Assembly (NCBI GenBank): GCA_017506865.1
Contig: JAFCMP010000536.1
Span: 1,240,001 to 1,304,000, forward strand
Direction of reading: 5' to 3'
Length of the DNA stretch: 64,000 bases
Source of the DNA: Tribonema minus
Lineage: Eukaryota > Sar > Xanthophyceae > Tribonematales > Tribonemataceae
Numbering within the stretch: position 1 is the first letter of the stretch; each line of letters begins with the position of its first letter. This document shows, piece after piece, positions 1,058 to 56,916 of the stretch. Made by a program: the position numbers and the translations under genes. The notes beneath the pieces were generated by a model. The model searched no databases. It had not been told where the DNA came from and was given only the letters and a program-made list of their open reading frames with translations.

Positions 1058-4000
1058 ATGCGGGCGCTGCAGCAGGTGCCACTCCTTTCAGCAGTGGCAG
1101 TAGCGGCAGCGCTGCGGACTGCCGGTGCATGGGGCATGCGGCCATCAGGCATGCTCGCAGCTAGAGGTCTTGGTGCTAACCTGCTGGCACGACAGCAATG
1201 GCGCATCGGCAGGGCGATTGCAACCTCGGCGTCTAGACGGTGAGCAGTTATTATGCAATCAATCATGGAAGCTGTTTGTGCTCTTTGCCATTGACGAACT
1301 TCAAGTATAAGTCGCATGCAGCAGTCACTTGTGCCTCGTACAGTTGCAAAGCTATGCTGTCGGTGTCGCCATGCATATTGCTATGGCAATAATTGCAGCT
1401 GACGTGCACCAGCTGTACAGCAATGGTGCACAGACACAGCAACTGTCGCGTTGCCTCAATGCATCGCCAGCTTCAAACCTCAGGGATCATGTTTTGTTGG
1501 TGTAGAGCAGTGCCTGCGTATAGGGCCTGCAAGTCCACACCAATGCTCTACTGAGCTGGCCCCGACCATTGCTTCGAACGATTGCAACACAGCATTCAAG
1601 CAGAGCCGCTGATTCCGCATCTGTTGGTTGTACCTGTTTGATCATGACTTTCGAGACTGTGTTGTCGACAAATGCCAGGGCTGTAGTATCATTTCACAAG
1701 CGGTATGCTGTCTCAAGTCTGCTTCAGTGTGGTATTGAAGCTTGCTATGCGCGGAAGGCGCGGAATGCATGCTCTGTGTGAAGTGCTGCTGTGCCTCGCA
1801 AAGTGCATACGTGCAACAAGACGTAATGCACCGCTTGCGCGCACAGTCACCGCGTTGTGCACCACACTGTAGTAGTGGTTTTTTTTTGACATCAGTCTGA
1901 CTCATTTCACCACACACACTGGAAGGCAGACAGTGCCGACTTGAGCTTTTGATGGCTACCCACACCTTGTCACCTGGAGCTCTACGATTTTTTGATTCGT
2001 TTTCCTGAGCTTCTGCAGTGGCAGGACAGCTCGCTTGCTTGGCAGTGGTAGGGCAGTTTGCTTGACTGTATGCAACGGCCTCAATATCACAATTGCCCTT
2101 CGGGCCTTCTCATCATGACGTGCGCGAATGCGAGCTGCAACGCCCATGAAACTTCAACTGCAAAGTTGGCGCATTCTGCTCAAGTGCCATGCATGACCAC
2201 CTGACGTGTGCAGGGAACCGCGCACAGCAGCAAGAGTGCGTTCTGGTGCCCTTTTCACCAAGTATTGTGCTCATTTTTCAAAACCTAAATACCATTACTT
2301 TTTCTATTAAAATTATATATAAATGGGTCAACATCGGGGGACATAATGTTAATTGGTGGGTCAATCTCACCCAGCTGGCGGTCTACATGAACCCCACTTA
2401 TTACAGAGAGTTACAAACAAAACTGCAAAAGAGAATGGCATTTAAGTGCATTGATGTTTGCACCGTATTGCACGATGGCAGGCGCGATCCGCGCGCAAAC
2501 CTGCTGCGCGCGAGTGCTGCCACGGTGATCCATGGCAGGCTCAGCGCCGACGGCGTGAGCCTCTATGCTCAGCCACTCAAAGATCAATATGCGACAATAA
2601 CACGCAGTCACAGCAGCATATGGTGTTTGGCGCTTCCGCCGCCGAGCTCAACGGCAGCCTGGATGCCCAGTCACTCATTATCAATACGCGACAACAGCAC
2701 TCAATCACAGCATATACTTCAGCAGTGTCTGTGCCTCGGTGCGCAATACGCCGATGTTAGCCCCATTGTTGAAACGCCTTGCACGCACGACGGCAGGCGC
2801 GACCCGCGCGCGAGCCTGCTGCGGGCAAGCGCCGCCACGGAGGTCCACGGCAGGCTCAGCGCGTATTATGGCGTGAGCCTCGTTGCCCAGGCACTCATAT
2901 ACAACATGCAACAACATCACGCAGCACAGCCTACACTTCAGTAGTGTTGGAATACATTGATGTTTGCACCATCTTCCACGACGCGCAGGCGCGATCCGCG
3001 CGCGAACCTGCTGCGTGCAAGCGCCGCCACGGTCCACGGCAGGCCGAGATGCCCAGTCACTCAACGTGATACGCAGCAACAGCACTCAATCTCAGCATAG
3101 ACTTCAGCAGAGTGTGGTGCTTCAGTGTGCAAAGCATTGATGTCAACACCATTTCGCATTATCGCAGGCGCGACCCGCGCGCGAACCTGCTGCGCGCGAG
3201 CGCGGCCACGGAGGTCCACGGCAGGCTCAGCGCCGACGGCGTCAGCCTCGATGCTCAGGTGGTGGCCAAGCAGCCGGACATTGTGCTGAGCAACCTGCGC
3301 GCGCGGCGCGCGGGCGATGAGGCCATTGAAACCGTTTCATCGATCGGCGGTGAGTGAGGCTTGTGCATTGTGTTGTGCTCCAGTGATTGTTGTCGAGATG
3401 AGTTTCCAGAACTGGCGGGGTGTGGTGGGTTGAAGAGATAAGGAGAGGCGCGAGAGCGCATGGGGATCAGAGCTGCTAAAGCTTCATGTTGTATGCATAC
3501 ATGTACAGGCGTATGCATGTACTTCTATACACTAAGTGTTCTTCTTCGTCTGTCCCCTTGCGGACCTGGCTGCTCCACTCCACCCTCTGGGAAGCTGCAG
3601 CCCATTCAGGCTTGCCAATACTACCAGGTTGTTGGGAGTTCTGAGAGCGCGGTGATTCATGAGATGCATCTCACACTGAAGCAGCGGCGTTTATGTCATG
3701 TGTACGTCATTGTGTTGCTTTCAGAGAGCATGGAGCCCCGTCTGCCACTGCGCGGATTTGACTTTTGCCCCTGTAGTTAGGGTTTAGGATTAGGATTAGG
3801 CTTAGGGTTAGTCCTCTGCTACCGCAACGTCACAAGAGTCACATCATGGCATCGACAGCCGGCAAATGGGATGAAACAGTATACATCAGCGTGGCCGTGA
3901 TGCAACTCGATATATTGCGCTGCGTCTCATCTCTGAGTCATCTGTGACCTGCTCATCTGCTCCAACCAGGGCTGATGGAGCAGCGCACGGGGCTCATCCG

Positions 4001-56916: not shown

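What the first reader, a model, noticed from the sequence alone, without database searches (positions are those of the whole stretch)
2470..56500. Systematic tandem copies of exon edges with their splice sites inside the flanking introns
In all four genes, most introns carry one to five degenerate copies of the neighbouring exon edge. Copies of the exon start plus acceptor lie upstream of the exon, and copies of the exon end plus donor lie downstream. I counted more than 30 junctions with at least one copy. Examples: SerRS exon 9 donor (3 copies), SerRS exon 12 donor (5), carbonic anhydrase exon 2 donor (5) and exon 5 acceptor (5), methyltransferase-like exon 2 donor (5), channel exon 2 acceptor (4), exon 14 acceptor (2), exon 20 donor (4). 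The true site is always the outermost one, so the intron contains every decoy. A tandem duplication spanning a junction would produce exactly this order, but its regularity across unrelated genes and both strands suggests a continuing intron-growth process focused on splice junctions. The splicing machinery must also ignore many intact decoys.
Basis: partly seen in the sequence, partly recalled or inferred. Interest (0 to 1): 0.88.

Follow-up and report, generated by a model that had tools for sequence, protein, structure and literature searches.

The report
Introns growing from duplicated splice junctions
In four genes of a photosynthetic organism, most introns contain decaying copies of the neighbouring exon edge with its splice site, apparently made by repeated duplication of a piece of about 160 DNA letters that straddles the real junction, so the introns lengthen while the protein is left alone.

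Summary
Confirmed. In hand-built models of four genes (47 exons, 43 GT-AG introns), 40-nt exon-edge probes match the intron on the expected side at 40 of 84 junctions, the wrong side at 0 of 84, and inverted introns at 0 of 168. Ten CCT-family loci elsewhere give 29/100, 0/100 and 1/200; an HSP70 pair gives none in 12 exons.
Anatomy: copies are about 161 nt apart, with about 50 nt of exon and 105 nt of intron per unit. They decay without coding constraint. Intact decoy splice sites score like true ones. 'True site outermost' follows from selection on the protein and fits exon definition.
Is it focused on junctions? Uniform placement predicts about four pure-intron duplications per junction duplication. 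With exons and exon copies masked, and after sorting by hand, I count 21 junction arrays against 7 others. Nearer copies are usually younger; the true junction is in the closest pair in 16 of 20 arrays. Junction focus is supported; its cause, targeted birth or survival anchored by the conserved exon, is open. No RNA was available.

The parts
1136..17947 (+). SerRS gene, 13 modelled exons
20176..25628 (-). beta-carbonic anhydrase gene, 8 modelled exons
29155..32981 (+). methyltransferase-like gene, 5 modelled exons
35381..56916 (+). channel gene, 21 modelled exons
2449..3258 (+). acceptor array, SerRS exon 2 (3 copies)
5851..6201 (+). donor array, SerRS exon 5 (weak)
6657..7196 (+). acceptor array, SerRS exon 6 (2 copies, spacing 171-181)
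7193..7564 (+). donor copy, SerRS exon 6
8092..8407 (+). acceptor copy, SerRS exon 7 (AG lost)
8442..8775 (+). donor array, SerRS exon 7 (2 copies)
9450..9727 (+). donor array, SerRS exon 8 (2 copies; two clusters)
9882..10220 (+). acceptor array, SerRS exon 9 (2 copies)
10264..10916 (+). donor array, SerRS exon 9 (3 clear copies)
11199..11535 (+). acceptor array, SerRS exon 10 (2 copies)
11564..11775 (+). donor copy, SerRS exon 10
12948..13194 (+). donor array, SerRS exon 11
15942..16684 (+). donor array, SerRS exon 12 (5 copies)
17497..17810 (+). acceptor array, SerRS exon 13 (2 copies)
20810..21169 (-). donor copy, CA exon 6 (GT lost)
22428..22945 (-). acceptor array, CA exon 4 (one strong, three weak exon copies)
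23272..23551 (-). acceptor copy, CA exon 3 (17-nt exon match, weak)
24313..25467 (-). donor array, first modelled CA exon (5 copies)
25579..25920 (-). probable acceptor array upstream of the first modelled CA exon
   Evidence: two clusters, classed there as outside the models
29265..30178 (+). donor array, MT exon 1 (5 copies)
30301..30647 (+). acceptor array, MT exon 2 (2 copies)
30932..31390 (+). acceptor array, MT exon 3 (2 copies)
31438..31946 (+). donor array, MT exon 3 (4 copies)
36569..36990 (+). acceptor array, channel exon 2 (about 22 nt of exon)
37081..37626 (+). donor array, channel exon 2 (3 copies)
37935..38370 (+). acceptor array, channel exon 3 (2 copies)
38403..38663 (+). donor copy, channel exon 3
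39385..39954 (+). array linked to the channel exon 4 donor
41280..41610 (+). acceptor copy, channel exon 6
42389..42641 (+). acceptor array, channel exon 7 (2 copies)
43857..44201 (+). donor array, channel exon 8 (2 copies)
44883..45127 (+). acceptor copy, channel exon 9
45149..45297 (+). donor copy, channel exon 9 (GT lost)
45823..46287 (+). donor array, channel exon 10 (2 copies)
48520..48914 (+). acceptor array, channel exon 13 (2 weak exon copies)
49521..49968 (+). acceptor array, channel exon 14 (2 copies)
52329..52747 (+). donor array, channel exon 16 (2 copies)
52816..53158 (+). acceptor array, channel exon 17
56017..56601 (+). donor array, channel exon 20 (4 copies, unit 111)
32954..33356 (+). 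array across the methyltransferase-like stop codon (not a splice junction)

Best explanation
The introns of this photosynthetic eukaryote grow by repeated local DNA tandem duplication of a unit of about 160 bp that straddles a working splice junction (about 50 nt of exon and about 105 nt of intron). A donor-spanning duplication puts a copy of exon end plus donor just inside the intron; an acceptor-spanning one puts a copy of acceptor plus exon start there. Such events leave the mRNA unchanged if splicing keeps using the sites nearest the exon body, which is what exon definition does. Duplications inside exons or of whole exons would change the protein and are presumably removed by selection. 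New copies arise mostly from the real junction and push older ones deeper, so the array is a rough age record. Copies then decay without coding constraint. Shown: copies, side, orientation, spacing, unit geometry, a tendency of nearer copies to be younger, absence of coding constraint, strength of decoy sites, excess at junctions over intron interiors. Inferred: that the modelled sites are the ones used, exon definition, removal by selection, and why junctions are favoured (targeted birth, or longer survival because the conserved exon keeps the array recognisable to recombination and conversion).
For: Right side 40/84, wrong side 0/84, inverted 0/168. CCT loci 14/50 + 15/50, wrong side 0/100, inverted 1/200; of 5 CCT hits set aside there as partial duplicates, 4 are partial copies of a neighbouring exon hit on the predicted side and 1 is only an overlapping neighbour. 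Predicted exons of the other fetched gene loci 52/232 right, 12/232 wrong, 0/464 inverted. Two partial kinesin-domain hits, seen by eye, both on the predicted side. Spacing median 161, IQR 122-182, n=69; exon part median 52 (n=31), intron part median 105. Codon positions of 54 copies 7.4, 9.0 and 15.8 % divergent, near the 1:1:2 expected if the copy drifts freely and the exon changes only silently. Nearer copy less diverged in 50 pairs, more in 13; for the nearest two, 16 and 5. True junction in the closest intron-flank pair in 16/20 arrays, 8.15 expected, P 0.0002. Junction arrays 21 against 7 other intron clusters with exons and copies masked (hand-sorted; 16 against 5 and 12 against 3 at the two stricter settings). 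An LHC paralogue on C1 has an acceptor copy that its C79 relative lacks. A 151-nt unit at a predicted exon edge in L029 is about 99 % identical in the printed alignment, intron included.
Against: No RNA, no second individual or species. Exon parts differ by 0.10 per nt and intron flanks by 0.355 (unrelated 0.52; n=54), more than the factor of two that simple decay predicts; part is bias, since copies were found by their exon part, but conversion by the exon or fast indels in introns may have to be added. Five of 20 arrays have a farther copy, not the nearest, closest to the true junction; counting only the strictly adjacent pair gives 11/20, P 0.14. Decoys share 17 % of their changes at codon positions 1 and 2, where exon-only growth predicts about none and random growth 33 %. 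Raw pair counts, before sorting, were 23 beside exon or copy edges, 29 elsewhere in introns and 21 intergenic (16/15/13 and 10/17/9 at stricter settings). HSP70 pair: 0 of 12 exons. The 50-kb C1 stretch shows only 5/51 right-side, 2/51 wrong-side and 1/102 inverted hits.
Confidence: 0.76

Rival explanations
1. Ordinary tandem duplication, equally likely everywhere in noncoding DNA; junction cases look special only because exon-internal ones are purged and the exon-derived part of a copy stays recognisable longer.
For: Explains side, order and the absence of exon-internal copies. An array at a stop codon and intergenic duplications show that duplication is not confined to splice sites. Raw densities of local repeats are similar near and far from junctions within introns (25-31 % of probes at score 18), though copies themselves count there.
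Against: With exons and exon copies masked, 21 junction arrays against 7 other intron clusters where about 85 are expected (P 4e-10 under uniform 150-nt units). Junction units are larger than others (159 against 102.5 nt, n 49 and 8, P 0.003). Exon parts are not spread evenly (KS P 0.0002, n=21).
Confidence: 0.2
2. Anchored survival: duplications start everywhere, but only arrays that include a conserved exon keep enough homology for unequal exchange and gene conversion to go on, so they persist and grow while intron-only arrays fade.
For: Exon parts look much younger than their intron flanks (0.10 against 0.355); the codon ratio near 2 fits conversion as well as drift; a stop-codon array is expected.
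Against: Does not by itself predict the unit geometry (about 50 nt exon, 160 nt total), nor why young duplications are rarely seen away from exons (9 of 76 pairs lie more than 60 nt from a known or predicted exon).
Confidence: 0.35
3. The copies are functional: alternative or regulatory splice sites kept by selection.
For: Intact decoy sites score like true ones (donors 5.0 against 5.4, acceptors 4.9 against 4.7); 55 of 69 copies that reach the edge keep GT or AG.
Against: Codon positions 1 and 2 are not protected (7.4 and 9.0 %); GT/AG retention is about what 90 % identity per base gives; no copy covers 90 % of its exon.
Confidence: 0.06
4. A mobile intron element (introner) or another dispersed repeat produces the copies.
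For: The window has dispersed elements and a donor-side TTGAAGT motif.
Against: Exon-edge copies match their own adjacent exon, on one side only, never inverted, and unrelated introns only at the chance level (5 of 86 at the loose threshold).
Confidence: 0.02
5. Assembly artefact.
For: Raw reads were not available.
Against: Graded divergence, from about 0 to 25 %, mostly in age order, and the same pattern on other contigs.
Confidence: 0.01

Closest known systems
Boundary-crossing tandem duplication in a potato RdRp gene (PMC4974935, passages read)
   Same: A tandem duplication that crosses an intron-exon boundary and carries branch site, polypyrimidine tract, 3' splice site and exon start.
   Different: One event, in which a new intron was gained at the duplicated region. 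Here about half of the tested junctions carry copies, up to five each, and the modelled transcripts ignore them, so introns lengthen but none is gained.
Intron gain by tandem duplication of an AGGT exon segment (Rogers model; described in PMC3443670 and PMC4974935, passages read; original papers not read)
   Same: Local tandem duplication feeding intron evolution.
   Different: There an exonic segment is duplicated, so a copy of the downstream exon start would lie at the intron start. Here exon-end copies lie at the intron start and exon-start copies at its end.
Introners (PMC9860276, one passage and the start of the abstract seen)
   Same: A mass process that changes intron content genome-wide.
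   Different: Introners are transposable elements that make new introns; these copies are local and specific to each exon.
Choice between competing sites by exon definition (PMC9225289, abstract read)
   Same: With large flanking introns, the sites closest across the exon are preferred, which selects exactly the outermost sites seen here.
   Different: [quoted passage not shown] not tested in this organism.

Membership tests
Boundary-crossing tandem genomic duplication | Direct, adjacent, same-strand copy of a segment that includes exon, splice site and intron | tested here: met
   (intron flank similar above 20 shuffles in 49 of 61 copies)
Boundary-crossing tandem genomic duplication | A new intron is created and spliced | tested here: inconclusive
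   Gene models need no extra intron, and SerRS aligns without decoy-derived insertions apart from about 12 residues at the exon 12/13 boundary; only RNA can settle it.
Rogers AGGT intron gain | Copy of the downstream exon start lies at the intron's 5' end, and copy of the upstream exon end at its 3' end | tested here: not met
   The copies found are exon-end copies on the donor side and exon-start copies on the acceptor side, nearest copies about 90-330 nt from their own junction. The wrong-side test (0 of 84) is a different question (exon start in its downstream intron).
Introner | One repeat family shared by many introns | tested here: not met
   exon-edge probes match unrelated introns only at the chance level, 5 of 86 at the loose threshold
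Tandem exon duplication / mutually exclusive exons | Copy contains a whole exon with both splice sites | tested here: not met
   no copy covers 90 % or more of its exon; probes were capped at 100 nt there, and in the uncapped extension the longest exon part was 92 nt among nearest copies (n=31)
Exon definition as the selection rule | Sites closest across the exon are used although equal sites lie in the intron | not testable with these tools
   Consistent with models and site scores; needs RNA

The most novel reading that the evidence does not exclude
A mutational process in this lineage duplicates DNA in a frame set by the working splice junction: breakpoints about 50-60 nt inside the exon and about 105 nt inside the intron, mirrored at donors and acceptors, with a unit near one nucleosome repeat or Okazaki fragment (sizes recalled, from no call). 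It acts on the functional junction rather than on near-identical decoys, and so drives intron growth directly from the spliced gene structure, for example through exon-positioned nucleosomes at replication or through co-transcriptional splicing.
Probability: 0.3. Interest if true: 0.9.

Novelty: new variant of a known kind. Interest (0 to 1): 0.72.

Why it matters
How introns get longer is usually put down to transposons and random insertions (general knowledge). Here about a quarter of intron sequence in the window (10.6 kb of 41.1 kb) lies in arrays linked to the neighbouring junction. That makes intron growth readable as a rough time series, and gives a natural experiment with dozens of intact competing splice sites that the cell seems to ignore, a direct test of exon definition outside the usual model organisms.

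Tried and rejected
Self-BLAST missed some near-diagonal repeats (for example 27831-27991), so I wrote my own finders. Per-class repeat density was inconclusive because copies in introns count as intron hits; arrays were therefore clustered and retested with masking. Of the 29 'elsewhere intron' pairs at the 24-nt setting, I sorted 20 by hand into junction arrays; the other 9 pairs form 7 clusters, 3 of them dispersed-element or telomere-like. The 21-to-7 count rests on that sorting. The same sorting gives 16 to 5 and 12 to 3 at the 30- and 40-nt settings. The P value assumes uniform 150-nt units; the expected ratio runs from 3.2 to 10 for units of 200 to 75 nt. In one search, 9 of 197 pairs (one dispersed element, telomere-like repeats) were dropped before clustering.

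A gene finder trained on the window (leave-one-gene-out 39 of 47 exons exact, 58 predicted) was used on other loci; its 12 wrong-side hits of 232 probably include decoys predicted as exons. In one search, 55 of the 56 CCT hits were used (one lay outside the fetched stretch) and 5 were set aside before the count, which left 50 exons. In one search one of 21 arrays was dropped for low similarity. One search listed 76 young pairs from about 261 kb; 9 lie more than 60 nt from a known or predicted exon, and one of those 9 (17502) is in fact part of the SerRS exon 13 array. TTGAAGT as a cause was set aside: it is enriched on the donor side only, while acceptors have almost as many copies. GC content was not separated as a cause (exons 66 %, introns 54 %). 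Copies that lack an array (for example SerRS exon 1 and channel exons 15, 17 donor and 21) are weak and may be chance; they are not listed as parts.

Identity of the organism: 92 LHC exon hits; closest solved relatives are ACP/CAC proteins and a polyprotein LHC (that these are cryptophyte and Euglena-type is from memory); no phycoerythrin-alpha hit, but that family rang in no control genome. I do not name the organism. Searches for a printed description of the pattern: (two returned no paper); judged by titles and starts of abstracts, none described it, in an open-licence library only.
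Full report
WHAT WAS CHECKED. The window lies at C533:1240001-1304000 of a 158.18-Mb, 554-contig genome. I built models of the four genes by hand from the sequence (one exon end corrected): SerRS 13 exons, beta-carbonic anhydrase 8, a methyltransferase-like gene 5 and a channel 21, with 43 GT-AG introns. 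The SerRS protein aligns to bacterial SerRS across its exon junctions (E 1e-113).

THE COPIES ARE REAL. Forty-nucleotide probes from exon starts match the upstream intron at 19 of 42 junctions and exon ends the downstream intron at 21 of 42. The same probes match the wrong-side intron at 0 of 84 and the reverse complement at 0 of 168; in 7 of the 168 probe-intron tests at least one of 20 shuffled probes also reached the threshold. A looser search finds 88 copies at 43 of 86 junctions, with an expected chance contribution of about 5-7 junctions. By that search 31 of 43 introns hold at least one copy, and no copy covers 90 % of its exon.

IT IS NOT LOCAL TO THE WINDOW. Exon hits of the CCT/Cpn60 family in ten loci give 14/50 and 15/50 on the right sides, 0/100 on the wrong sides and 1/200 inverted. 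A simple gene finder (39 of 47 window exons exact when each gene was left out of training, 58 predicted) gives 52/232 right, 12/232 wrong and 0/464 inverted in the fetched loci, but only 5/51 right, 2/51 wrong and 1/102 inverted in a 50-kb stretch of contig C1. In the kinesin table, by eye, two partial duplicate hits lie on the predicted side and I saw none on the wrong side. An HSP70 paralogue pair with introns of 174-510 nt between its hits has none in 12 exons. So the pattern occurs on several contigs but is uneven.

ANATOMY. Successive junction copies are spaced 161 nt apart (median; IQR 122-182; n=69). The exon part of the nearest copy is 52 nt (median, range 20-92, n=31). In exons of 125 nt or more, 21 of 22 values are 68 or less, and the distribution departs from uniform breakpoints (KS P 0.0002, n=21); the intron part is 105 nt (median). 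In other loci 31 of 37 overlaps with predicted exons are 70 nt or less, though values below about 45 are under-detected there. Donors and acceptors show similar values (rows). Intron flanks are homologous too: 49 of 61 copies exceed all of 20 shuffles, so the unit crosses the junction.

FATE OF THE COPIES. In 54 copies, differences from the exon are 7.4, 9.0 and 15.8 % at codon positions 1, 2 and 3, as expected when the copy drifts freely and the exon itself changes only at silent sites. GT or AG is kept in 55 of 69 copies that reach the edge, about what 90 % identity per base gives. Intact decoys score like true sites (donors 5.0 against 5.4; acceptors 4.9 against 4.7; a decoy equals or beats the true donor at 13 of 17 junctions and the true acceptor at 8 of 15). 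Site strength alone therefore cannot tell them apart. The modelled sites are the pair nearest across the exon, which is the rule reported for exon definition in genes with large introns (PMC9225289, abstract). That this rule operates here is inference.

GROWTH AT THE TRUE JUNCTION. Nearer copies are less diverged in 50 pairs and more in 13; for the nearest two copies, 16 and 5. By intron flanks, the true junction belongs to the closest pair in 16 of 20 arrays where random choice of the unit to be duplicated predicts 8.15 (P 0.0002). If only the strictly adjacent pair is counted the figure is 11 of 20 (P 0.14), and in five arrays a farther copy is the closest, so the order is not perfectly tandem. 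Decoys share 17 % of their position-1 and -2 changes; random growth predicts 33 %, growth from the exon alone about none.

IS IT FOCUSED ON JUNCTIONS? Uniformly placed 150-nt units would give about four pure-intron duplications per junction-spanning one. Unmasked, I find 39 junction arrays and 14 other intron clusters. Exon conservation makes junction copies easier to see, so I masked exons and exon copies and compared only noncoding sequence. The raw pairs at the loosest setting were 23 beside exon or copy edges, 29 elsewhere in introns and 21 intergenic; sorted by hand against the arrays, they make 21 junction arrays and 7 other intron clusters, where about 85 would be expected (P 4e-10). 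The stricter settings sort to 16 and 5, and to 12 and 3. Junction units are also larger than the few others (159 against 102.5 nt, n 49 and 8, P 0.003). Against strict splice-site targeting: one array crosses a stop codon (32954-33356), and intergenic DNA holds local duplications. Exons are GC-richer (66 % against 54 %), which could raise duplication there; that was not separated.

ONE COMPLICATION. Exon parts of copies differ from the exon by 0.10 per nt, intron flanks by 0.355, unrelated sequence by 0.52 (n=54). Simple decay predicts a factor of two. Some of the gap is bias, because copies were found by their exon part. Gene conversion by the conserved exon, or a high indel rate in introns, would explain the rest. 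Conversion would also keep exon-anchored arrays alive while intron-only ones fade. This 'anchored survival' is the main rival to a targeted mechanism, and I cannot separate the two here.

RECENT ACTIVITY. L029 holds a 151-nt unit at a predicted exon edge that is about 99 % identical in the printed alignment, intron included (94 % over the wider stretch scored). An LHC paralogue on contig C1 has an acceptor copy (score 34) that its relative on C79 lacks (score 10); BLAST aligns their exons but little of their introns, so gain in one or loss in the other are both possible.

RELATION TO WHAT IS KNOWN. The nearest printed case I found is one potato gene in which a tandem duplication crossing an intron-exon boundary created a new intron (PMC4974935, passages). 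The AGGT model of intron gain (PMC3443670, passages) predicts another placement of copies, and introners (PMC9860276, one passage and the start of the abstract) are transposable elements. Eight library searches, judged by titles and starts of abstracts, listed no description of serial junction copies inside introns; the library is open-licence only, so this is weak evidence of novelty.

VERDICT. The ordinary part is the order of copies, which selection on the protein enforces. The unusual part is the number of events, the size and geometry of the unit, the growth from the working junction, and a junction excess that remains when exons and copies are masked.

Noticed in passing
introns, first 150 nt after donors, window-wide: TTGAAG is enriched in the sense strand just inside introns: 3.7 per kb near donors, 0.6 near acceptors, 0.4 intergenic. 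It may be an intronic splicing signal; some of it is inflated by the arrays.
   Followed up: partly
36100-36150, 39520-39650, 61381-61563, 62539-62767, 63060-63200: A dispersed element of about 130-180 bp ending in AATTAATAAAAAGTAC or similar; the copies at 61381-63200 are 95-97 % identical, the two in introns were seen by eye.
   Followed up: no
13480-15622: A repeated block inside SerRS intron 11 with several related copies, 71-95 % identical.
   Followed up: no
4251-4292, 4933-4971, 10593-10641, 12142-12181, 44255-44279, 46503-46533, 47080-47116: Short interstitial TTAGGG/CCCTAA-type repeats inside introns.
   Followed up: no
32954-33356: Array of about 60-130-nt units that starts at the stop codon of the methyltransferase-like gene, similar behaviour at a non-splice boundary.
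   Followed up: partly
57900-59850: A further GC-rich, apparently coding stretch with long GGC/AGC-type repeats; not modelled.
   Followed up: no
L006 and L007 (C296 and C490): Two 3.4-kb LHC loci on different contigs are 100 % identical; a recent duplication or an uncollapsed haplotype.
   Followed up: no
L045, L046 (C522): An HSP70 paralogue pair with short introns (174-510 nt between hits) carries no exon-edge copies, so gene class or intron size may matter.
   Followed up: partly
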